22,475 bases of DNA from a virus: IMG/VR virus record IMGVR_UViG_3300010150_005239, positions 1 through 22,475 of that record; one strand, written 5' to 3'. The notes below the pieces were generated by a model that worked only from the letters and a program-made list of their open reading frames with translations, was not told the DNA's origin and did no database searches. Below, one piece after another: positions 2,207-14,229 of this stretch (position 1 is the first letter of the stretch; every line of letters starts with the position of its first letter). The translations under genes and the position numbers were made by a program.

Positions 2207-2860
2207 TTATTCTCCAGGGATAATCAACCCACGACGGGTTTCTTTAAACTTGTTCTTGATAACCATTTCTTCTTCTGAGTCTTTGGTTGTTGGTACACCC
2301 GCAGAGTCTACCTCAACAAAATCATACCTCTCGGGGTCTAGCTCATTACCAAAGTGCATTTCTTCAACTTCTGGAATAGCAGTCTTATTGCGTCCAATAT
2401 CCTCAAGTAGAATACCTTGCTGGTGGTCCACTTCATGTTGGAACGCGATACAGGTGATAGGATGAACAACCATAGGAAGAGTGAATTCTTTTGCTTCCAT
2501 GCCGTTCCAAAAGTGTCCAGATACATTTATGTGGCGATAACGGGGAACTGTCCATGTATACCCAGGTAATGACAAACACCCCTCCTCGACTTCTCCCCTT
2601 TTCCCATTGGAGGTATAAGTCGTATTAATGAATGTAACCATGTCCACCATACTGAATGGCTTGAATTTAAACTTTATGAGGCTAAAGTCTACAATGAACA
2701 TGTTGTATTCATAACCGATTTGAACAGCGGACAGGCCAATGGCAGGACCGTGTTCTCGAATACCTTCAATTAATTCCTTTGAGATACGGCTGATTAAAGT
2801 CGTATCAAACAAATCAACGTCTTGTCCTAGGGGGATGTCTTTGGAGGGAATGAGTGTCAT
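2207..2860 (-). CDS. def: Peptide deformylase
   Basis: Peptide deformylase removes the formyl group from the N-terminal methionine of new proteins. All three family motifs are present in 217 residues: motif 1 as GLSAVQIG (42-49), motif 2 as EGCLS (93-97) and motif 3 as QHEVDH (141-146). Predicted metal ligands are C95, H142 and H146, with E143 as catalytic base. Motif 1 is slightly off the usual GLAAPQ form. A tail of about 55 residues after motif 3 is longer than the minimal phage versions. The stop and start overlap with the neighbouring glycosyltransferase as ATGA at 2857-2860. Phage deformylases are known from several marine phages, where they are thought to support host or viral protein processing. 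Identification is firm; the reason for its place in a glycosyltransferase block is unclear. Confidence 0.95.
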   Translation of the reverse strand: MTLIPSKDIPLGQDVDLFDTTLISRISKELIEGIREHGPAIGLSAVQIGYEYNMFIVDFSLIKFKFKPFSMVDMVTFINTTYTSNGKRGEVEEGCLSLPGYTWTVPRYRHINVSGHFWNGMEAKEFTLPMVVHPITCIAFQHEVDHQQGILLEDIGRNKTAIPEVEEMHFGNELDPERYDFVEVDSAGVPTTKDSEEEMVIKNKFKETRRGLIIPGE

Positions 2861-4068
2861 ACTGTGTGATTTTTCCTTATTTCCTTTGCCCAGTCGTGAA
2901 GGATAGGTTGGGTTTTACCCTCTAGCAATTCCTTCATTTGTTGACCAACAGCCAAGTGTGAATAGTCATATGCTCTAGCGATACCATTCTCAGCACGCTT
3001 TTCTCGTTCTTCTTTGTTCTCAAAGGCCTCTCTCATGGACTCCCGAAGAGACTGAATATTGATAGCTTGCCAGTTTTCGTTACTGACATAAAGGTCTTCA
3101 AGGGTATCCCTTACATCATAGCAGGGTTCGGGTTGACAGTCAACCAACCAACCGCCTTTAGCGTAATCTAATTCGCCAGCCACTAGTCGCCCCTGGCTTT
3201 TGTATAAAAAGTCCGAAGGACCACCGACATCTGTACAAATGGGAGTCTTACCCATTGCCATGGCATCAAAAGCTGGAATACACCATGCCTCACCGTGGCT
3301 TGCAATAGTGAAGCAATCACATGTACTGTGAAGCTTCATAATCTGTTCATCAGAGAATCGTTGGGTTAGAATGATTTCATCATGATACATCTCTGGATTA
3401 CGATAAATCTTCAGTCCGTTCTTGATTACCGTACATTCATTCCTGATAATACGCTCTGCTTGTTGAGAGGTCTTACCTGGGACGTTAGCCTTGATAACCA
3501 ACTGGACTTTGTCAGTAGGTCTAAACTCAAGGTGAAAAGCCTTGACTAGAGCCGCAACGTTCTTCCTTTTGGTAAACTCACCAATGAAGTAGAAGCGGAA
3601 CACGCTGTCTCCTCCTGGTAGTTCAATCTTACTGTAGGTCTTCTGATACTTAGCTGTGTCACAAGGAACCGGCACTACTGCCAATGGACAAGCCACATAG
3701 CTATTCTTAGAAGCTTCAATCATCTGATTACAGGAAACCCATGATTCATCCATGAGTGTTAGACTCTGAGCCCATGATGTATTACGGAAGTGGTCTGTCT
3801 CCGTCAAGTACATACCAATGTTCTTTTCGAAGTCTCCGTTGAAGTCCATATGGTGAGGAAGTACATTCTGAATCACATGGGTGACATCATGCGTGCTTTT
3901 ACCCTCTAGCTCTTTAATTCGCTTAGGGATTTCTCCATCCCTCTTATTCAGCTTTAATGGGCGACACACAACGTCTACCCCAGCAGCGTCTAAAGCAAGG
4001 ATGTTTTGGATAGCACTGTGGCTCCAACCTGTTCCGTCTCGGTACACACCGATGTATAGTACTTTCAT
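2857..4068 (-). CDS. GT-B glycosyltransferase (GT4-like)
   Basis: This 403-residue protein is a second group 1 glycosyltransferase. It begins with the typical first strand of a GT-B N-domain (MKVLYIGVYRDGTGWS, residues 1-16). FRFYFIGEFTKRKNVAALVKAF (157-178) is the beginning of the C-terminal domain. SHGEAWCIPAFDAMAMGKTPI (258-277) is the donor-site signature, followed by TDVGGPSDFL. It is probably cytoplasmic, with no export signal. ATG 4068 is preceded by GAGGAA about 11 bases upstream, within the end of the preceding small gene, and the gap is only two bases. The stop overlaps the deformylase start by four bases. Substrates are not readable. It is not a close copy of the other GT-B proteins here, so the three genes are not recent duplicates. 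Confidence 0.85.
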   Translation of the reverse strand: MKVLYIGVYRDGTGWSHSAIQNILALDAAGVDVVCRPLKLNKRDGEIPKRIKELEGKSTHDVTHVIQNVLPHHMDFNGDFEKNIGMYLTETDHFRNTSWAQSLTLMDESWVSCNQMIEASKNSYVACPLAVVPVPCDTAKYQKTYSKIELPGGDSVFRFYFIGEFTKRKNVAALVKAFHLEFRPTDKVQLVIKANVPGKTSQQAERIIRNECTVIKNGLKIYRNPEMYHDEIILTQRFSDEQIMKLHSTCDCFTIASHGEAWCIPAFDAMAMGKTPICTDVGGPSDFLYKSQGRLVAGELDYAKGGWLVDCQPEPCYDVRDTLEDLYVSNENWQAINIQSLRESMREAFENKEEREKRAENGIARAYDYSHLAVGQQMKELLEGKTQPILHDWAKEIRKNHTV

Positions 4069-4289: not shown

Positions 4290-4519
4290 GTCATCGTTCC
4301 CATTTTAAAGCTTGGTTTTTCACTTGTTGTCATCAAACGAGTAGGGGCTTTTTCTACCCATTCGTATGCTAAGATATACTTGAGATACTCTTTCCCTGGA
4401 TTATTAGTCATAATCTTATAGACAGAATCCCAAACAAATTCTTCACTAGGCTTATCCTGTAGATTAGGAGAAGATGGAGAATCTGGTATCACTTTGATGT
4501 TAACGCTTATTCGTTCCAT
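4262..4519 (-). CDS. Small unknown protein
   Basis: This is an 85-residue protein of unknown function that begins with ERISVNIKVIPD. The frame is also open upstream to a TTG at 4561, but ATG 4519 is preceded by an AAGGAAGAT Shine-Dalgarno-like sequence at good spacing, so I place the start there. It overlaps the end of the zinc-ribbon glycosyltransferase gene by 20 bases. The composition is mixed alpha/beta, with aromatic residues in the C-terminal half (YLKYILAYEWVEK, then TMTWYVKVYVK). There are no motifs, cysteines or membrane segments. Its position between two glycosyltransferase genes gives no specific function. Confidence 0.65.
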   Translation of the reverse strand: MERISVNIKVIPDSPSSPNLQDKPSEEFVWDSVYKIMTNNPGKEYLKYILAYEWVEKAPTRLMTTSEKPSFKMGTMTWYVKVYVK

Positions 4520-6239
4520 TAATATCTTCCTTCTTGTTCTTGACAAAGCTTGGGGTAGCAACTTTAATCATCCCTACTCGTCTCTTCTCGTATGTATTCC
4601 TTCGTTCAGCCATATCATAGAACTGACGAATGGCGTGTTCAGGAAGGAATTGGTGATACACGTTTTTATTAGCGAGGTGAGAGGCCTCATTAAAAAACAA
4701 CCCTCCTGTGCCGCCTACAGTGGACCCATATTGAAGGTCTCTTAACATACGGAGGGCGACATAGCTTTGAACTTGGTCTGGCTCCCCCCAGGTATTAAGA
4801 ACCGCCCAATGAACAAGCTGTTCGGGGTTCATATTGCGAGGAGGAGAGGTGTTAGGAGTGTTAAGTCGAGGTGGACTGTCCCATGTCTCAATCTCTTCAC
4901 GTAGTTCAACTCCATCAATAATTGCTTCCCATTTTGTTGCAGTAATATCATAGTTGTACTTCTTCAGTACTTGATTGTATGCTTCACGCCCCTTATGGCG
5001 ACGTACTGTAGTTGGCTTACTTAGGAACTTAGCCAGTTTTTCTACAAAGTCATCGTTATCAGGTAACGCACGCCATTGTTGAGTATTGGCGTCACGGAAC
5101 ATCCTCTGGACATCAATCGGTGTTCCCTTCAAGTCTTTTACCACAGATTGCATAGCAGAATAGTCTACAGCCATCACAGGAACACCACAAGAAGCAGCTT
5201 CCACCTGAGGCATACCAAACCCCTCGCAGACGGAGTATTGAACGTAGACATCAAACCAATTATATATAGCCGCAAGCTGTTGGTTATTTACCCCAGACTG
5301 AGTAGTTGGAAGCTTGGCAGTTCTCCTGTGACACTTCTGACAAGTTGTTCTACCACCCTGAAAGAAGGAAGGGAATACATACTTACAGTTAGGTTGTTGG
5401 CATACATAAGTGAACAGGACACGATGACCGATGTCATTTTCTCGTAGAAGACTAGGAATATCCCATCCTAAGTCAGGCCAAGCGGTATGAGCATAGAGGA
5501 ATGTGTTCTCGGCTATATCTGGGTGTTTTCTACCGAAGTCAGCAAAAGACTTGAATAGGTCAGGGAATAGCTTACGAACTTGATTACGCATAACCGTTCC
5601 CACAATTTTGCAATTAGGGTCTAGTCCACATTCTTCCTTGTGTTTTTCCTTATCTTCCACAGGTTTGAAAGCCGACAAGTCTGCCCCTGGAGGTGTTATG
5701 TCAGCAACCTTGATGGAACCATTGGTCTCTTGCTCTAAACAATCCTTACCAAACTGGCTGTATGTAGTAACTATATCAGCATCAAGATAAGTAGCGAGCC
5801 ATTGTTCTTGTTGAGGGGCACTATCAATAGTGGGCATAACCAACCATTTGAAGTGAGGACGAAACGGAGAACGGGCAATGAACTCGTGCATCCAATGGTC
5901 ACGAATATCCATTACAATATCAGGACGGAAGTCTAGGCAAACGTCTTCAAAACGCCATTCGCCAAACTGATAAGTGTTCTGAGACCGATATAGAGAAACG
6001 GCCTCGTCGTTATAAGAGGGGTGAGATTGGTTTTCTACTGGTGCATTACCATAGAAGGTCCAGGGAAGCTTAAATCTTTCGGTAGCTGTTTCATCAGCGT
6101 ATCCACCTAATTCAGCAATCTCATATTTACCTGTTGCATGTAGTCTTTTAAGAACTTCATGGCCGTACACAGAATAACCTGTTTTTAGAAAGGTTGCTTC
6201 TCCGACCCACAAGATTCTCGGTTTCCTCTTAATATCCAT
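4500..6239 (-). CDS. GT-B glycosyltransferase with inserted Cys4 zinc ribbon
   Basis: This 579-residue protein is longer than usual for GT4 enzymes (about 350-420). The N-domain opens with RILWVGEATFLKTGYSVYGHEVL (8-30). The linker ITPPGADLSAFKP (181-193) and the donor signature CEGFGMPQVEAASCGVPVMA (338-357) mark the C-domain. Between them are four cysteines in zinc-ribbon spacing: C280, C285, C300 and C303 (CQQPNC then CQKC). This looks like a domain inserted into the C-domain just before the donor motif. A C-terminal extension of about 130 residues follows the core (NMNPEQLVHWAVLNTWGEP onward) and may bind the acceptor. ATG 6239 has GGGAAG a few bases upstream and overlaps the sigma factor stop by 11 bases. 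The role is sugar transfer; donor and acceptor are unknown. Confidence 0.85.
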   Translation of the reverse strand: MDIKRKPRILWVGEATFLKTGYSVYGHEVLKRLHATGKYEIAELGGYADETATERFKLPWTFYGNAPVENQSHPSYNDEAVSLYRSQNTYQFGEWRFEDVCLDFRPDIVMDIRDHWMHEFIARSPFRPHFKWLVMPTIDSAPQQEQWLATYLDADIVTTYSQFGKDCLEQETNGSIKVADITPPGADLSAFKPVEDKEKHKEECGLDPNCKIVGTVMRNQVRKLFPDLFKSFADFGRKHPDIAENTFLYAHTAWPDLGWDIPSLLRENDIGHRVLFTYVCQQPNCKYVFPSFFQGGRTTCQKCHRRTAKLPTTQSGVNNQQLAAIYNWFDVYVQYSVCEGFGMPQVEAASCGVPVMAVDYSAMQSVVKDLKGTPIDVQRMFRDANTQQWRALPDNDDFVEKLAKFLSKPTTVRRHKGREAYNQVLKKYNYDITATKWEAIIDGVELREEIETWDSPPRLNTPNTSPPRNMNPEQLVHWAVLNTWGEPDQVQSYVALRMLRDLQYGSTVGGTGGLFFNEASHLANKNVYHQFLPEHAIRQFYDMAERRNTYEKRRVGMIKVATPSFVKNKKEDINGTNKR

Positions 6240-7661: not shown

Positions 7662-8036
7662 TTAAATTATGGGAACGCCACTAATCTCGTCTTCTGTAAC
7701 CCTTTTGTGGCTTTTTACTTTAAGGCCTGCCAGACCAAAGGTGTTGCCTTTGGCAATCCCCTCACAACAAGCAATCTGAACAATCTCCATTATTGCTTGA
7801 CCAAAAAATTCGTCATTCCAGTCTTCTTGCGAACATGGAACAGACCCTATATGTGTGTTATTGAGGTAGACATGCATAAGTTCACAACTAGGCTGAAAAG
7901 CAACAGTTGCTCCCGTTGCATATTCTTTATCTTCCAATTCCTTCTCTGCTTCTGCTTCTGCTTCTGCCGCTTCTGCTTCTGCTGCTGCTGCTGCCTCCGC
8001 TGTCTCCAAAAAACCTTCATCAAAATAGTGACTCAT
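7662..8036 (-). CDS. Unknown protein with Ala/Glu repeat
   Basis: This 124-residue protein starts at ATG 8036, which shares one base with the polymerase C-half stop (TGATG); AAAGGAAA lies upstream at good spacing. A TTG codon one position earlier is a less likely start. Residues 12-34 are a low-complexity alternation of Ala and Glu (EAEAEAEA), probably a charged helix or flexible linker. The remainder (about 40-124) is a compact-looking domain with cysteines at C51, C69, C90 and C91 and a hydrophobic helix AIMEIVQIACCEGIA. I do not recognise the family. The repeat is encoded by a hexanucleotide tandem that could vary in length. It lies between the polymerase C-half and the ssb group. Confidence 0.7.
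   Translation of the reverse strand: MSHYFDEGFLETAEAAAAAEAEAAEAEAEAEKELEDKEYATGATVAFQPSCELMHVYLNNTHIGSVPCSQEDWNDEFFGQAIMEIVQIACCEGIAKGNTFGLAGLKVKSHKRVTEDEISGVPII
7945..7996 (-). repeat. GCAGAA/GCA tandem microsatellite in coding sequence
   Basis: The plus strand reads as repeated TTCTGC units mixed with CTG triplets. On the coding strand this gives GCAGAA and GCA units encoding Ala-Glu and Ala runs. All steps keep the frame in multiples of three, so slippage would change protein length without a frameshift. Confidence 0.85.
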
Positions 8037-9772
8037 CAAATTTCCTTTACTTTCTTAACAGAGAGAGAACCTTGATTAGTTCTTTCTCCTTGAATTAGTA
8101 CAGTATTTCCTTCAAACAGCATTGCTTGATATTTCTTGTAGGGTTCTGGGAAACAGACAACATCATCAAGGGCACATGAAGAATCAGAGACGGTCAATCT
8201 CGCCATCTTCGCTCCAGGGTCTTTACCCTTCTTTGTGACCAACTCGTGTGCCTTATCTATTTTAACAGCCACAACCATATAGTCAAGTGCCTGACCCCCT
8301 AAAAATTCCCGACAGGTGGTATTAGCGTTGATAGCCTCTTCTCGGCCATCCACGACGCTGCAAGATAGCGAAACCCCGAGATATTTCTCTTCTGACCAAG
8401 CTATGAAGTCCATGCTGTCTTCTAAATCTTGACCTGGGTTCTTCAGTACAAGAAGTAAATCCTTAAGTTTTTCACCTCTTTTTTTAGTGGAAGCACCTCC
8501 ACCACTGATTCTCACACGCTTGCGAACACCATCATCATCAGTCTGAAACTGGAACTTACCCGGTTCTGAGCAGTCGTCGATAATGTCTATAAGACAAGTC
8601 CACTTTTTAGAAGCCCACTTTTCCCTTACCCATTCCTGCTCTGATGCCTTAACATTCTTGTTCCATTGAGTGTACTCAAAGAACATCTTCCTGCGACTGA
8701 CCTTAAAGTAGTCCAAGGCACCGCAGTTGATAAGAGCCTCATTCACTGTCTTATTTGTAAAAGGAGCGAAGAAACATAGGTATTCTAGCCAGGACCACTC
8801 TTTGGGCTCTTTACCCAGTAGTTCAGTAGTCTCCTTGATTTGTTTGTAGAGTTTCGTTGATGCGGATTTACCAATGTCACGAATCTCTTGGGTTCCCATG
8901 CGAATCTTCCGGTCTTTAATTTGAGCGTAAGGACGAATGTCAAAAAACTCAGGAAGAAGAACATCCATGTCTAGGGTTTTAGCGTCATTAACTACTACAG
9001 CAATCTCTTCATACTTATCTGATTTCCAGTCTGCACCAATAATGTAGGAGCAGGCGAACTCAATTGGGAAGTGAGCCTTGCAGTAGGCAGTCCAGTAAGC
9101 ATTTTTACCATAGGTTACAGCATGAGATTTATTAAAGGAGTACTTCTGACTTTCACGAATCCAACCAAAAACCTCTAAGGCAAGTTCGTCATTTAGAATA
9201 CCTGTCTTTTTACACCCCTCAAGGAATCCCTTCTCAACCAATGCCATGATGTCAGCTTTTTTCTTACCGATAGCCTTACGCAGAATATCTGCCTCTTGCT
9301 CAGTAAAACTTGCCATCATTGAAGCAATACGCATAGCTTGTTCTTGGTAAGCTAATACACCAAAAGTCGCTCTCAGAATAGGTTCTAGAGCCGGATGGAT
9401 ATTCGTCACTGGTTCACGACCATGTTTTCTATCCACATAACGCTCTGTCATACTCTTAGGGGGAGTACCGCTCATGGCACGAAGGCAACCCGGTCTCAAC
9501 AATGCGTTCAAAGCACCTAAATCCTCCAAGTTCTTAGGTTTGGAGTCTTTGGACCATCGCCTACCGAGATTACTCTCAAGTTGGAAAATCCCTTTGGTGA
9601 TACCCTCTCCCATTAACGCCCAGACTATAGGGCATTCCAATGAGACATTGTGAATATCTACATCAGCCAAGGGGATTGGGTCACCGGGTTCGGCGTGGAA
9701 ATCTTCTTTCGACTTGTAATTGGGGTCAACGATTTCCCAGCGACACCCACAAGGATAGATTACATCAGGCAT
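8036..9772 (-). CDS. dnaE: DNA polymerase III alpha, C-terminal half (split DnaE)
   Basis: This 578-residue protein begins where the other half (12136-14229) ends. After an N-terminal extension with a CGC motif (8-10), residues 32-68 match the DnaE segment just after the third catalytic aspartate region, ending in TKGIFQLES (59-67). Then come LNALLRPGCLRA (88-99), FGVLAYQEQAM (137-147), RKAIGKKKADIM (165-176) and SFNKSHAVTYGKNAYWTAYCKAHFP (212-236), all standard C-family fingers motifs. The C-terminal 60 or so residues look like an OB fold. It lacks the PHP domain and the PDxDxD box, so it must work with the N-half. No Shine-Dalgarno sequence precedes ATG 9772, but a perfect consensus promoter ends five bases before it. 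A clear beta-clamp-binding motif was not identified. Confidence 0.93.
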   Translation of the reverse strand: MPDVIYPCGCRWEIVDPNYKSKEDFHAEPGDPIPLADVDIHNVSLECPIVWALMGEGITKGIFQLESNLGRRWSKDSKPKNLEDLGALNALLRPGCLRAMSGTPPKSMTERYVDRKHGREPVTNIHPALEPILRATFGVLAYQEQAMRIASMMASFTEQEADILRKAIGKKKADIMALVEKGFLEGCKKTGILNDELALEVFGWIRESQKYSFNKSHAVTYGKNAYWTAYCKAHFPIEFACSYIIGADWKSDKYEEIAVVVNDAKTLDMDVLLPEFFDIRPYAQIKDRKIRMGTQEIRDIGKSASTKLYKQIKETTELLGKEPKEWSWLEYLCFFAPFTNKTVNEALINCGALDYFKVSRRKMFFEYTQWNKNVKASEQEWVREKWASKKWTCLIDIIDDCSEPGKFQFQTDDDGVRKRVRISGGGASTKKRGEKLKDLLLVLKNPGQDLEDSMDFIAWSEEKYLGVSLSCSVVDGREEAINANTTCREFLGGQALDYMVVAVKIDKAHELVTKKGKDPGAKMARLTVSDSSCALDDVVCFPEPYKKYQAMLFEGNTVLIQGERTNQGSLSVKKVKEI

Positions 9773-9777
9773 AGTAT

Positions 9778-9806
9778 ATTATATCACGGCATGGGGAAGT
9801 TGTCAA
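9778..9806 (-). promoter_or_regulatory. Perfect extended sigma-70 promoter at the start of the polymerase C-half
   Basis: On the minus strand TTGACA (9801-9806), a 17-base spacer and TATAAT (9778-9783) match the sigma-70 consensus at all 12 positions. The spacer ends in TGA, giving the extended -10 form TGnTATAAT. The TGA is also the stop codon of the exonuclease gene. Five bases follow the -10 before ATG 9772, so the expected start is at or next to the A of the ATG, a leaderless messenger. The ATG has no Shine-Dalgarno sequence, which agrees. Confidence 0.75.
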
Positions 9807-10536
9807 CGAAACAGTTCTTCATTTCCAGGCGGCGTTTGTCAGAGCCCGGCTTCTTAGCTGTCATAAACCTCTCCATTTTAAATAGCTTGATTGCCATTTG
9901 AGCGGTAATATGGACATCAATGTCAGCAGCGTGAGTTTGACTTAGAAGGGATTCTGGCACCCCCATGTAGGCAGCTAGAGTACCCAATTGAAGATTCTGC
10001 AACTCTTTCTTTTTGCCTGTCTCAATATTTTCATTCCAAAACCACATATGTTTCATAACGTCGAAGCTATGAACCTGATTAAATAGGCGGGGTTTCATCT
10101 TACCCTCAATAAAGCGGTCCTTCTCAGTTGGTCCATACTTATGACAGTACCTAGAAGTAATAGGGTTATCGAACCCCTCAATGTTATACCCACAAGAGAC
10201 AGGAGCCTTAAACCCAGACTTTCCAGGTTTGCCATAGTTGTACTTATCAACCCAGGAAACAAAGGTGGGCCACACAACGTCGATGCTAGGAGACTCGTTA
10301 AGTTCCGCCTTGAACTTATCTACAGTGATTTTCCTAACTTCTTCTGCGTGCCACTTAATGGTATCTTCTTCACAACCCTCTGCGTCCCAGTCAGGCCGGA
10401 TTTTCATTCTAAACTTATCGACAATCTCCAGCTTACGGGAGTGAACCATCGTTGCGGCTATCTCGATAATCTGACAGTTGTCAGGGTCTCGTCCTGCGGT
10501 TTCGTAATCGTATACACAAATTGGATTAAAATTCAT
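9784..10536 (-). CDS. DEDDh 3'-5' exonuclease (DnaQ-like)
   Basis: This is a 250-residue exonuclease of the DnaQ superfamily. Exo I is VYDYETAG (8-15) with D10 and E12 as metal ligands. Exo II is probably GYNIEGFDNP (116-125) with D123. Exo III is THAADIDVHIT (201-211) with H202 and D207 in the HxxxxD arrangement. C-family polymerases rely on a separate or inserted proofreading exonuclease, and this gene lies immediately before the polymerase C-half, so proofreading of the phage replicase is the likely role. ATG 10536 has GAGG about 7 bases upstream and overlaps the upstream glycosyltransferase stop as ATGA. Long inserts between motifs make it larger than E. coli DnaQ's catalytic domain. Confidence 0.9.
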   Translation of the reverse strand: MNFNPICVYDYETAGRDPDNCQIIEIAATMVHSRKLEIVDKFRMKIRPDWDAEGCEEDTIKWHAEEVRKITVDKFKAELNESPSIDVVWPTFVSWVDKYNYGKPGKSGFKAPVSCGYNIEGFDNPITSRYCHKYGPTEKDRFIEGKMKPRLFNQVHSFDVMKHMWFWNENIETGKKKELQNLQLGTLAAYMGVPESLLSQTHAADIDVHITAQMAIKLFKMERFMTAKKPGSDKRRLEMKNCFVDNFPMP

Positions 10537-11402
10537 CTAGTTACCTCTTCAGTTTCTAAGTGTAATGAACGCTGCTTCTTGACATGCTTAGTCCAAAAGT
10601 CCTGCCCTGTCATTTCGGGCCACTGGTTTTGTCTAGCCCTCAAGAGGGGTAGTTCATCCGTAAGCCTCTCCTCTGTCATTTCTGACCATTTATCTAATAC
10701 AAGTATTGGAAGGAAAGCCGACAAGCGTTCCATCCCCACAGTTCTGGTCACAATCGGAACAGCACCCATCTTCAACGCTTCCCACACTCTGAAGGAATCA
10801 TGTCCATTGCCCCTGGGGCAGGCGACGTAGTGGTGCTTCTTAAACTGCTTATAGTAGTCTTCCTGGCTTACGCTGTTCTCTTCAATGGTGACCCAAGGTT
10901 TGCCAGAGGCATAGACCCTAGGAATAAATTGACGGAAAACACATGTGTCGTGATTGAAGTTGACATAGCACATATTCTTGTACTTGTCTTGCTTAGTGGG
11001 AATATAGTTATCCCTAACATCTACTAGTGTATGAATATTCCTAGTCAACACACCCAGTGGATGATGTCTCATTTTAGGATGTTCCACATTCAGATTGTTC
11101 ACATACATGTAGTTCAAGTTCTCAGGAATAATATCATCAAAGAACATGAAGCTAGTCAATCCAGCCGTACTAGCAAAGTAGTAGGCAAACTCATTCTCTT
11201 CTAACCCCATATCTCCATTACGCATCAATAGGGAGGCAGTATGGTCCTGCTTATGCAACCAGTCCATACACACGCCAAAGTCCTTAAAGTCCAGGTAGAT
11301 AATCGTGTTATCTTTGGTAAGGGGCACTGGCTTGTCGGCTTTAAAAAACACGTCATACTGACCGTGTGGTGCGTGAGAGTCTGCTGTTATAAATTCGCTC
11401 AT
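10533..11402 (-). CDS. Exostosin-like glycosyltransferase
   Basis: This 289-residue protein carries the exostosin/GT47-type signature CPRGNGHDSFRVWEALKMGAVPIV (about residues 195-218), the nucleotide-sugar-binding part of a GT-B fold. It is preceded by a stretch of short strands and histidine-rich turns, with no N-terminal membrane anchor, as is usual for bacterial and phage versions. It transfers an unknown sugar, probably in the cytoplasm. ATG 11402 has AGGA 4-5 bases upstream. The gene lies between the two halves of the split polymerase, away from the main glycosyltransferase block (1-6239), which suggests a separate insertion or a rearranged order. Confidence 0.8.
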   Translation of the reverse strand: MSEFITADSHAPHGQYDVFFKADKPVPLTKDNTIIYLDFKDFGVCMDWLHKQDHTASLLMRNGDMGLEENEFAYYFASTAGLTSFMFFDDIIPENLNYMYVNNLNVEHPKMRHHPLGVLTRNIHTLVDVRDNYIPTKQDKYKNMCYVNFNHDTCVFRQFIPRVYASGKPWVTIEENSVSQEDYYKQFKKHHYVACPRGNGHDSFRVWEALKMGAVPIVTRTVGMERLSAFLPILVLDKWSEMTEERLTDELPLLRARQNQWPEMTGQDFWTKHVKKQRSLHLETEEVTR

Positions 11403-11403
11403 G

Positions 11404-11892
11404 TTATCCTGATGTTGGTGGAATATTTCGTGTGGTCATCTTTGTCGTTGGGACTGCACTACCGTAGTGTTCTTCCCATTGGTTTTTAGGCATGTATCTC
11501 ATGTCAACAGCCTTTTCTATGTCTTCCTTTTTCATCCAGGCTTGTTCTTTACCTGCTGTCCATTCTTTTTCGGTTTCCTTAACGTACTCTGATGGAACAA
11601 ACTCCTTGTCTTCATCAGGAGCTAATAAATCTAAGGGGAACTCAGTTTTACAACCTGGAGTTATGTCTACTGTCTCAAAAATTTTACTTGTAATATCACC
11701 TGATAACACACCCATTCTCAAGGGGGTTGATAGTGCTATGGCTAAGTCACGCTCAGCCTTTCCTTGGGCGTAGCCCTCACCAAACCTTACATCTCCGTAG
11801 GCACGAATGCCACACATAACAGACCCACAAATAAGTCTCAATATTACATACAGAGACAATATCAACGCAACCTGTAAAGCAATCACCAACAT
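11404..11892 (-). CDS. Membrane-anchored protein with capsid-arm-like segment
   Basis: This 162-residue protein begins with a strongly hydrophobic segment (3-22), a likely transmembrane or signal-anchor helix. FGEGYAQGKAERD (37-49) follows it. Residues 50-100 (LAIALSTPLRMGVLSGDI, then DITPGCKTEFPLDLLAP and DKEFVP) resemble the N-terminal arm found in some phage major capsid proteins, where a PG...FPLD..AP pattern precedes the HK97-type fold. That comparison is from memory and not verified. The remaining 60 residues are charged and do not look like a capsid core. The start is well supported by GGAGG before ATG 11892, and the gene shares one base with the upstream stop (TAATG). Function unknown. 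Confidence 0.7.
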   Translation of the reverse strand: MLVIALQVALILSLYVILRLICGSVMCGIRAYGDVRFGEGYAQGKAERDLAIALSTPLRMGVLSGDITSKIFETVDITPGCKTEFPLDLLAPDEDKEFVPSEYVKETEKEWTAGKEQAWMKKEDIEKAVDMRYMPKNQWEEHYGSAVPTTKMTTRNIPPTSG

Positions 11893-12155
11893 TACACTTC
11901 CTCCGCTTCAATTTCGTCTGCTACATCAGCTAGTCTCTGCACGAGTTTCGCTCGAATCTTACTTGCAGTAGTACGACTACCAGACTCAATACCTTCCTTA
12001 AAACCTTGATTGTATCGGTCCTGAGCATGACTGTCAGACTTTAAGCTGTAACATACACTTGTTGCCAACCAACCGGAGAATATCCCTATAGCTGTTGCTA
12101 TAGTGATACTAATTAAAGCAGTTGTCGCTGTTACTTCAACCATTAATGTGTCCAT
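11892..12155 (-). CDS. Small single-pass membrane protein
   Basis: This 87-residue protein has a hydrophobic helix at about residues 10-33 (TTALISITIATAIGIFSGWL), then DRYNQGFKEGIESGSR (46-61) and a C-terminal charged helix that may be a coiled coil. The Y-x-x-G-F-x-x-G pattern just after the membrane segment is repeated in the next gene (FGEGYAQG). ATG 12155 has AGGAAA 6 bases upstream and overlaps the end of the polymerase N-half by 20 bases. I do not recognise a family. A spanin or holin role is possible for a small one-helix protein, but lysis genes are not nearby, so I do not assign it. Confidence 0.7.
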   Translation of the reverse strand: MDTLMVEVTATTALISITIATAIGIFSGWLATSVCYSLKSDSHAQDRYNQGFKEGIESGSRTTASKIRAKLVQRLADVADEIEAEEV

Positions 12156-14229
12156 AAAAATTTCCTGTTCTAATCAGATTCAAACAACCTTTAATTTTGT
12201 CCAAGCAACTAATCCCGAGAACATCGAACTTCACATGGCCCATTGCCTCAAGGTCGTTCATTTCCATTCCCGCAATCAATGCTCCCGTAGTCTTATCATA
12301 CACCATCGGACACACTTCGGCAAGTGGCTCTTGCGAAATAACTACGCCCGCAGCGTGCTTACTTGTACCCTTCTTAGTGCCTTCTAGGCGAATTGCCTGC
12401 TCAAAAATTTTAGCAAGCGGGCCTTGTATATTACCGTCGTCGTCCAGATATGCCCACTCACGCAGGTCGTCAGGGCTATTTTCGAGGGTCCACTGGATAA
12501 TGCTAATGTCACCATCACCACCTTCATTTTTGTTATGCTCACGCATAATCTCAAGTTGGTCTTCAATATCAGCTTTTTCAGGTAGGTTCTCAGTAATCTT
12601 ATTGGCATCTTCATAGCTCATAATACCATGGGCACGAATAACATCCTTAATAGCACCACGCCCCTGCATAGTCTGGAATGTAATCATTTGAGCAACATGG
12701 TCTTCACCGTACCTCTGCTTCATATAGACAAGCACACGCTCACGCCCATGCTTCTCAAAGTCCATGTCCACGTCAGGCAGGGAAACGTGTTCGGCTGTAT
12801 TTCTACCAGCGTTATAGAACCGTTCAAACAACAGGTCGAACTCAATAGGGTCAATGTGGGTAACACCCAAGAGATACAGAATTAACGAACCAGCCGCAGA
12901 ACCACGTCCAGCACCAGTTAATTGACCATCTCGGACTGCCCAAGCAATAATGTCCCACACAATTAGGAAGTAGTCAGCTAGTCCTGCTTCATCCAGAACC
13001 GTCATTTCCTTCTCAAGTCTATCTACATAGTCTTTTTGTGTATATTCAAAGTTAGGGTGAGCAATCACCTTCTTAATTAAGTCTAATCTTTGCGTCCATC
13101 CTTCACGACATAGCTCTCTCAGATACTCAGCAGAGGTCTTATTGTCAGGGGTGGGGAACTTAGGAAGCATAGGAGGACCAGTAATCTTGTATTCCTCACA
13201 CATTGAGGCGACCAACAAGGTGTTACTTAGTTCTTCTGGGGTATGGATTGCCGCCATTGTCTCGTATGAGGGGATATGGTATCTGTCGGAACGAAAGAAT
13301 GTCCCTAGAGCCACGTCTTCCCCGCTAACGCTCTTTCTTTCAACCTCTCTTAAAGTTGTGTTCAGGTTGTTGCATAATAAAACCCGGTGGTCATATGCGT
13401 CTTCTGGATAGGCGTAGTGAGCATCTGGTGTTCCGATACACTTCAATCCTAGTTTCTTGGCGAGCCACCTCAATCCCTTTGCTACCACCTGGGAAGCAGG
13501 ACTGTTTTCTTGGTCAATTAGCTGAATTTCAACGAAGAAGTTCTCTTCTCCGAAAACATCTTGCAAAGACCTGATTTCTGCGGTTACTCTTTCTACCCAG
13601 TCAGGATGAACTAATTCCTTAGCCTCCTCATAGGAGTTTGCACTGTACGCATCTCCTGGGGTTTCAAAGAAGGCAGAGGCTAGGTGAGAACCCAGATGTC
13701 CACTGAAAGCAATAAGATTACCCCCACTAACCAATGACTTGATTGTAGGGAGGTCAATTCGGGGGTTGTAGTAGAATAAAGCTGGGTCAAATGCTTTAGA
13801 AGTAATCTGAATAAGGTCTTTCCAGCCCTGTTTGTTTTTGGCTAGAACAACCAAGTGGTTATTGTCACGCCTCTTGGTACTCTTATCACGAGGGTCATAT
13901 GAGGTGACGTATAGTTCACAGCCCAGAATAGGCTTTAGACCAGGAGATTCTACAACCTCTCCATTCTCACAATGTTCTTTTACATAATGATTCGCAAACT
14001 CTTCACCAGCAAAGTTTCTCTTTACATCCTTACCGTCCTTCACAACATGAAATCTATCACGGCTTAGAGCCGAAGAGAAGGACACAGCACCAGAAATGCG
14101 TCCATGGTCAGTGATGGCACAACCGGGCAGACCTAGCTCGTCGCATCGCTTTGCAACCTGTGAAGGTTTGCTGAGACCGTCAAGGAAACTATCGTGTGTA
14201 TGTACATGTAGTGGGAAATATGTTGACAT
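12136..14229 (-). CDS. dnaE: DNA polymerase III alpha, N-terminal half (split DnaE)
   Basis: This 697-residue protein is the first part of a C-family replicase. The PHP domain (1 to about 275) keeps its metal residues: H8, H10, H42, E105, H125, D269 and H271. The polymerase part shows GAGRGSAAGSL (439-449), the catalytic SLPDVDMDFE box (483-492, D488 and D490), THAAG-type KHAAGVVIS (624-632) and the third catalytic aspartate in VKFDVLGIS (666-674, D669). The protein stops about 25 residues after that motif, where an intact DnaE would continue through the fingers. The rest is encoded separately at 8036-9772. The final ten or so residues overlap the next gene's ribosome-binding site. No intein motif is visible at the end. 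Confidence 0.94.
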   Translation of the reverse strand: MSTYFPLHVHTHDSFLDGLSKPSQVAKRCDELGLPGCAITDHGRISGAVSFSSALSRDRFHVVKDGKDVKRNFAGEEFANHYVKEHCENGEVVESPGLKPILGCELYVTSYDPRDKSTKRRDNNHLVVLAKNKQGWKDLIQITSKAFDPALFYYNPRIDLPTIKSLVSGGNLIAFSGHLGSHLASAFFETPGDAYSANSYEEAKELVHPDWVERVTAEIRSLQDVFGEENFFVEIQLIDQENSPASQVVAKGLRWLAKKLGLKCIGTPDAHYAYPEDAYDHRVLLCNNLNTTLREVERKSVSGEDVALGTFFRSDRYHIPSYETMAAIHTPEELSNTLLVASMCEEYKITGPPMLPKFPTPDNKTSAEYLRELCREGWTQRLDLIKKVIAHPNFEYTQKDYVDRLEKEMTVLDEAGLADYFLIVWDIIAWAVRDGQLTGAGRGSAAGSLILYLLGVTHIDPIEFDLLFERFYNAGRNTAEHVSLPDVDMDFEKHGRERVLVYMKQRYGEDHVAQMITFQTMQGRGAIKDVIRAHGIMSYEDANKITENLPEKADIEDQLEIMREHNKNEGGDGDISIIQWTLENSPDDLREWAYLDDDGNIQGPLAKIFEQAIRLEGTKKGTSKHAAGVVISQEPLAEVCPMVYDKTTGALIAGMEMNDLEAMGHVKFDVLGISCLDKIKGCLNLIRTGNFYGHING

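What the first reader, a model, noticed from the sequence alone, without database searches (positions are those of the whole stretch)
8036..14229. Replicative polymerase split into two genes 2.4 kb apart
The DnaE N-part (12136-14229) ends about 25 residues after the third catalytic aspartate motif VKFDVLGIS. The C-part (8036-9772) resumes with the segment leading to TKGIFQLES. The halves are complementary, and both are intact and expressed from the same strand. Between them lie two small membrane proteins, an exostosin-like glycosyltransferase and a DEDDh exonuclease. Split inteins are the known way to rejoin such fractured genes (for example cyanobacterial DnaE and several phage genes), but I see no intein motifs at either end. 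Either the halves assemble without splicing, or an unusual joining mechanism acts. The break lies next to the catalytic core, which is a demanding place for a split replicase.
Basis: partly seen in the sequence, partly recalled or inferred. Interest (0 to 1): 0.72.

Follow-up and report, generated by a model that had tools for sequence, protein, structure and literature searches.

The report
Phage DNA polymerase permanently in two pieces
A large family of uncultured bacterial viruses makes its main DNA-copying enzyme as two separate proteins, with the gene for its proofreading enzyme lodged between the two halves, and the arrangement is the same in all 163 distinct family members examined.

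Summary
N-part 12136-14229(-) is PHP plus palm; C-part 8036-9772(-) is fingers, HhH and OB domain. Together they cover a full DnaE/Pol III alpha; only the poorly conserved palm-fingers linker is cut, and no catalytic residue is lost. It is neither artefact nor pseudogene: all 163 distinct IMG/VR loci holding both parts have the same break, on one strand, and all 163 carry a DEDDh exonuclease gene between the parts. This lineage is one side of a 100/100-supported branch, apart from every intact DnaE sampled; 70 of 80 phage-type DnaE loci from a separate scan are intact. Twenty-five large records hold one palm gene and one fingers gene, and no family A or B polymerase. N tails (12-40 aa) and C heads (7-62 aa) are too short for a split intein; no intein or intron was found at the break. 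All three genes are under strong purifying selection. Best explanation: an obligate two-subunit C-family polymerase that assembles without splicing, probably with the exonuclease as third subunit. Split phage polymerases are known, but I found no report of this one. Assembly and activity are inferred.

The parts
12136..14229 (-). dnaE N-part: PHP + palm/thumb of a C-family DNA polymerase (697 aa), with D486/D488/D490 and D669 (window numbering)
   Evidence: Pfam PF02811, PF07733; Taq Pol III alpha alignment; AF2 pLDDT 92.1, pTM 0.90, Foldseek E 2.8e-43 to 2hpi; catalytic Asp invariant in 48 sequences
8036..9772 (-). dnaE C-part: fingers + HhH + OB of the same polymerase (578 aa), with an extra N-terminal beta hairpin bearing CGC
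   Evidence: Pfam PF17657; Taq alignment 642-950 and 1052-1104; AF2 pLDDT 92.4, pTM 0.85, Foldseek E 2.3e-22 to 7pu7
9784..10536 (-). DEDDh proofreading-type exonuclease (250 aa), between the halves in every relative
   Evidence: PF00929/PF16473, phrog_192 DNA polymerase exonuclease subunit; present in the gap in 163/163; D10, E12, D123, H202, D207 invariant 163/163
10533..11402 (-). glycosyltransferase-like gene (exostosin/RXYLT1-like), local insertion in the gap
   Evidence: PF24785 E=7e-7; not seen in the gaps of the other loci listed
11404..11892 (-). small protein with a hydrophobic N-terminus, unknown, local insertion
   Evidence: sequence; no Pfam or PHROG match
11892..12155 (-). small protein with a hydrophobic N-terminus, start overlaps the end of the N-part by 20 nt
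   Evidence: ORF and sequence; no Pfam or PHROG match

Best explanation
This is a gene-in-pieces C-family (DnaE-type) replicative polymerase, ancestral to and fixed in a large lineage of tailed phages. The PHP-palm protein and the fingers-HhH-OB protein are translated separately from one operon, order N - exonuclease - C, and assemble non-covalently into one polymerase. The three catalytic aspartates all lie in the N subunit; primer-template and nucleotide contacts by the fingers come from the C subunit. The cut lies in the surface linker between the last palm helix and the fingers. The exonuclease encoded between them is probably the proofreading subunit. SHOWN: complementarity, conserved catalytic residues, a single split set per record, purifying selection, one origin of the split in this lineage, absence of room for inteins. 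INFERRED: co-expression, non-covalent assembly, polymerase activity, the subunit role of the exonuclease, and that insertion of a gene (the exonuclease, or a homing endonuclease since lost) caused the break.
For: 163/163 distinct loci split at the same place, same strand, exonuclease in the gap. The split lineage is one side of a 100/100 branch in two trees; 70 of 80 loci from a separate scan are intact. 25 records of 45-173 kb: one PF17657 each, one PF07733 gene each (in five records it is itself interrupted), no PolA, no PolB. Median dN/dS: N 0.033, C 0.050, exonuclease 0.023. N tail 12-40 aa, C head 7-62 aa; no intein domain in the window parts; no Rfam match in the window. C starts have a Shine-Dalgarno-like stretch about as often as N starts, 52% v. 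51%, v. 16% for internal ATGs; the exonuclease stop is within 30 nt of a C start in 143/163. Confident AF2 models matching complementary parts of Pol III alpha. Precedent: split T4-like gp43A/gp43B co-purify and are active, and split Aeh1 NrdA is functional (PMC2988022).
Against: No complex was modelled and no protein detected. The window's own C start has no clear Shine-Dalgarno sequence, so it may depend on coupling to the exonuclease gene. All genomes are uncultured metagenomic records of unknown completeness; host Pol III could supply activity. Records may be fragments, so a second polymerase elsewhere is not strictly excluded (one 206-kb record, G032, holds two palm genes).
Confidence: 0.86

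Rival explanations
1. The halves are joined covalently by an unrecognised trans-splicing mechanism (very divergent split intein, or trans-spliced intron halves).
For: Cyanobacterial DnaE is joined by a split intein, and one member of this lineage (L067) has a real split-intein-like fracture with a LAGLIDADG gene at another site, FNK|SH.
Against: N tails of at most 40 aa and C heads of at most 62 aa, of which some 42-47 aa in total are ordinary linker; no intein domain, no Rfam match in the window; each half has its own start codon and often a Shine-Dalgarno-like site; the linkers vary in length and sequence across the lineage.
Confidence: 0.04
2. The halves are no longer one polymerase: the host replicates the genome and the PHP-palm and fingers proteins have separate functions.
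For: No viral beta clamp was found in 17 records, so the host replisome is at least partly used; L069 and L071 have lost PHP HxH residues.
Against: Catalytic Asp of the palm and signature residues of the fingers are invariant, both halves are always kept together beside the exonuclease, selection is strong and the distance matrices of N and C agree (r=0.92).
Confidence: 0.07
3. The arrangement is an assembly artefact or a decaying gene.
For: None beyond the metagenomic origin.
Against: 163 distinct sequences from many metagenomes with the same break; low dN/dS.
Confidence: 0.01

Closest known systems
Split gp43 (43A/43B) of T4-like Aeromonas phages 25 and 44RR (PMC2988022)
   Same: Replicative phage polymerase encoded as two genes without an intein; the two parts of phage 25 co-purify and are active; a homing endonuclease may sit in the gap
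   Different: Family B polymerase; break confined to some phages; no proofreading exonuclease gene nested between (family B carries its own exonuclease domain, own knowledge)
Split minimal Pol III alpha of group 2.2 jumbo phages (PMC7824862)
   Same: Pol III alpha in two proteins in large phages, predicted to reconstitute
   Different: There: minimal enzyme without the other Pol III domains, distantly located genes, break between NTP-binding and Mg2+/template-binding subdomains, PolB also present. Here: full-domain DnaE, one operon with the exonuclease between, break between palm and fingers, no PolB
Microbacterium cluster EF / Krampusvirus phages with two Pol III alpha genes (PMC7302621; L092)
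   Same: DnaE in two adjacent phage genes
   Different: The break is much nearer the N-terminus (345 aa / 767 aa), no gene between
Rossellomorea phage phiT1 gp20/gp18 (PV767480)
   Same: Break at the same linker
   Different: Separate position in the tree; a 49-aa gene between, no exonuclease; apparently a recent, isolated case
Cyanobacterial split DnaE and fractured genes with split inteins
   Same: dnaE in two genes
   Different: Joined by protein splicing at the FNKSH region (own knowledge); here no intein and a different site
Aeh1 nrdA split by mobE (PMC2988022)
   Same: Gene-in-pieces phage enzyme that works without splicing
   Different: Ribonucleotide reductase; one phage

Membership tests
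C-family DNA polymerase (DnaE type) | Palm with catalytic aspartates and GRGS motif | tested here: met
   D486/D488/D490/D669 and G441-S444 conserved in alignments A1 and A3; PF07733
C-family DNA polymerase (DnaE type) | N-terminal PHP domain | tested here: met
   PF02811 E=5e-31 in the window; HxH degenerate in L069 and L071
C-family DNA polymerase (DnaE type) | Fingers, HhH and OB domains in this order | tested here: met
   PF17657, 558-column Foldseek match to 7pu7; HHH_6 below cut-off in the window but above it in L067
C-family DNA polymerase (DnaE type) | Single polypeptide | tested here: not met
   163/163 in two genes; filed as a two-gene variant of the family
C-family DNA polymerase (DnaE type) | Templated polymerase activity and clamp binding | not testable with these tools
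   needs biochemistry
Split-intein fractured gene | Intein halves flanking the break | tested here: not met
   N tail 12-40 aa, C head 7-62 aa, no Hint/intein match
Split minimal Pol III of group 2.2 jumbo phages (PMC7824862) | Minimal alpha without PHP and other domains; distant genes; PolB present | tested here: not met
   PHP and OB present; one operon; no PolB in 25 records
PolC | Exonuclease domain inside the polymerase polypeptide | tested here: not met
   exonuclease is a separate ORF; structure matches favour DnaE over PolC
DnaQ-like DEDDh exonuclease | DEDDh catalytic residues | tested here: met
   D10, E12, D123, H202, D207 invariant 163/163

The most novel reading that the evidence does not exclude
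A three-gene replicase core in which the DEDDh exonuclease is not merely a neighbour but a structural subunit needed to hold the PHP-palm and fingers proteins together: a PolC-like polymerase-exonuclease arrangement achieved by protein association, kept since the ancestor of a large phage lineage.
Probability: 0.25. Interest if true: 0.8.

Novelty: new variant of a known kind. Interest (0 to 1): 0.64.

Why it matters
A replicase is normally thought to gain from being one chain. Here a C-family replicase, apparently the only polymerase of its phages, has stayed in two pieces through divergence to about 34% identity, at a linker that tolerated independent breaks elsewhere. It gives a natural, testable split-polymerase system (palm and fingers separable, activity dependent on both), a case for how a fractured essential gene becomes permanent without an intein, and a warning for annotation: surveys that seek full-length PolC would count these phages as having partial or no polymerase.

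Tried and rejected
(1) Split inteins or trans-introns at the break: no room, no Pfam or Rfam match. (2) Artefact or pseudogene: rejected by 163 distinct-sequence cases and dN/dS. (3) Cultured phages of this lineage: three protein searches of 50,697 phage records gave at most about 33% identity; several top hits (the human-faecal 'Bacteriophage sp.' records) are bacterial dnaE, e.g. MT836494 lies next to a phosphofructokinase gene. (4) Bacterial genomes: the one scan gave a single locus, L099, a 25-kb contig of an alphaproteobacterial MAG, probably a viral contig; no host can be named. (5) Viral sliding clamp (PF02768) in 17 records: none. (6) Group I intron in the second interruption of L075: no Rfam match even at E of 1. 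(7) Complex modelling: the structure tool folds one chain only, so the interface was not modelled. (8) The CxC element at the start of the C-part as a metal site: it co-occurs with a third Cys (154 of 162 loci agree), but relatedness was not corrected for; left open. (9) The last literature query was malformed; prior-art search is limited to open-licence papers.

Full report
WHAT IS THERE. The window is a 22.5-kb viral metagenome record. On the minus strand lie, in order of transcription, a DnaB-like helicase, a Toprim primase, a PD-(D/E)XK nuclease, then the dnaE N-part (12136-14229, 697 aa), two small proteins with hydrophobic N-termini, a glycosyltransferase-like gene, a DEDDh exonuclease (9784-10536) and the dnaE C-part (8036-9772, 578 aa). 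The N-part holds PHP and the whole PF07733 profile, the C-part the fingers domain. Against solved structures the N-part aligns up to Taq alpha 628 or M. tuberculosis DnaE1 600, the C-part from 642 or 605. In intact enzymes 42-47 residues separate KFDxLG from the FQLE motif (five measured); in the split lineage the N tail (12-40, median 19) plus the C head (7-62, median 44) typically equals or exceeds this. No essential residue is missing and none is duplicated.

HOW GENERAL IT IS. Scans of IMG/VR gave, after removal of repeats, 163 distinct loci with both parts. All 163 are split at the same place (profile end 632-640, profile start 2-13), all on one strand, all with the exonuclease gene in the gap; the gap is 600-5583 nt, mostly about 850, and at its smallest little more than the exonuclease gene. 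The window's 2.36-kb gap is thus a basic N-exonuclease-C unit with extra genes inserted. Median identity within the lineage is 51% for N and 45% for C (minimum 34% and 32%). The scans kept the best matches to the window protein, so they favour its kin; as a control, a scan led by an intact phage DnaE gave 80 loci of which 70 are intact and only one (L290) is split at this linker.

ONE ORIGIN. In two trees of the N-part the split lineage is one side of a branch with 100/100 support. Rossellomorea phage phiT1 and L290, split at the same linker, fall elsewhere, among intact enzymes, so the linker was broken at least three times if the intact state is ancestral. The trees are unrooted, so derivation of the split from an intact form is the simplest reading, not a proof.

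FUNCTION RETAINED. The catalytic aspartates and signature motifs of palm and fingers are invariant in diverse members; the exonuclease keeps all five DEDDh residues in 163/163. In close pairs median dN/dS is 0.033 (N), 0.050 (C) and 0.023 (exonuclease) (a few pairs repeat the same contigs). Distances for N, C and exonuclease correlate (0.92, 0.86, 0.86), as expected of genes inherited together. Twenty-five records of 45-173 kb hold one fingers gene and one palm gene each (in five records the palm gene is interrupted again), and no family A or B polymerase. Nine others of 103-244 kb hold one palm gene each, save one with two. Terminase matches in 13 of 17 large records (7 above the cut-off) point to tailed phages.

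WHERE THE BREAK LIES. AlphaFold2 models are confident (N: pLDDT 92.1, pTM 0.90; C: 92.4, 0.85) and match complementary parts of Pol III alpha. In N the catalytic strand 666-673 (D669) is followed by helix 674-688 and then a tail of low confidence; in C the fingers begin at helix 48-55 after a loop. So the break is in the linker after the palm. In many members the C-part has gained an N-terminal hairpin with a CxC motif, which occurs together with a third Cys just before the fingers (91 both, 63 neither, 8 discordant). Whether it binds metal, the N-part or the exonuclease is unknown.

HOW IT PROBABLY WORKS. Splicing is not a credible route: there is no room for intein halves, no family match, and separate start codons, with Shine-Dalgarno-like stretches before C starts as often as before N starts (52% and 51%, against 16% for internal ATGs; the best of several in-frame starts was scored, which favours the genes). 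The lineage does contain inteins and a split-intein-like fracture at other sites of the same genes (L070, L067), so such elements are recognisable here when present. The exonuclease stop lies within 30 nt of a possible C start in 143/163, which suggests coupled translation. The best reading is a polymerase assembled from two proteins, as for phage 25 gp43A/gp43B, which co-purify and are active, and split Aeh1 NrdA (PMC2988022). The fixed exonuclease position suggests that it is the proofreading subunit and may help assembly; its gene, or a homing endonuclease since lost, may have caused the break. Zinc-finger or homing-endonuclease-like genes lie in the gap of several members (L013, L058, L179, L183, L213, L250; mostly weak or no Pfam matches), as for seg43 in phage 25. 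These last points are inference.

WHAT IS KNOWN. Split phage polymerases are not new: T4-like gp43 (PMC2988022), a minimal split Pol III alpha in group 2.2 jumbo phages with distant genes and a co-resident PolB (PMC7824862), and two Pol III alpha genes in Microbacterium cluster EF (PMC7302621). None of these is this arrangement. A survey of polymerases in 18,382 phage genomes (PMC11348598) has one irrelevant use of 'split' in its main text. I found no report of the N-exonuclease-C form, within open-licence papers only. Hence a new variant of a known kind: strongly supported as a genomic fact, inferred as a biochemical one.

Noticed in passing
L075:9998-12991 (also L072, L074, L079-L081, L099): The N gene is interrupted a second time, right at the catalytic PDIDID motif, by about 1.1 kb with a LAGLIDADG-like ORF (11286-12137); the second piece carries a 115-aa extension. 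No intein ends and no Rfam intron found.
   Followed up: partly
L067:12721-15674: C gene fractured at FNK|SHGV with an intein N-half (PF14890) on the first piece, a LAGLIDADG_3 gene between, and an intein-like C-half on the second: a likely split-intein fracture inside an already split polymerase.
   Followed up: partly
L070:12494-14860: In-frame intein with an HNH domain at RPG|C of the C-part; the close relative L071 lacks it.
   Followed up: partly
window:8036-9772, first 60 residues of the C-part, and 163 relatives: An added N-terminal beta hairpin with CxC co-occurs with a Cys four residues before the conserved W (91 both, 63 neither, 8 discordant).
   Followed up: partly
L069:10001-11839 and L071:10001-11812: PHP metal-binding HxH residues are lost in these divergent members, although the domain remains.
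   Followed up: no
L290:5974-9248: A third, separate split at the same linker, overlapping ORFs with a GGGAGGA site before the C start.
   Followed up: yes
L316:5968-12231: DnaE in three pieces, broken at the PDxD motif and again within the fingers.
   Followed up: no
PHROGs phrog_7513 (unknown function), matched by window:12136-14229: Matches residues 3-481 of the N-part at E=1.8e-63, so this family is a DnaE N-terminal piece, probably from phages interrupted before the PDxD motif.
   Followed up: no
window:1164-6239 and 10533-11402: Several proteins that read like glycosyltransferases (1164-2204, 2857-4068, 4500-6239 by sequence; 10533-11402 by Pfam) lie in a replication region.
   Followed up: no
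phage records MT836494, MT836213, MT837297 (L082, L095, L096): Human-faecal records labelled 'Bacteriophage sp.' carry mutually similar dnaE; MT836494 has a phosphofructokinase gene beside it, so these are probably bacterial DNA.
   Followed up: partly
G032 (206,326 bases, record of L192): Two palm genes 146 kb apart in one record: a second replicase or a chimeric assembly.
   Followed up: no
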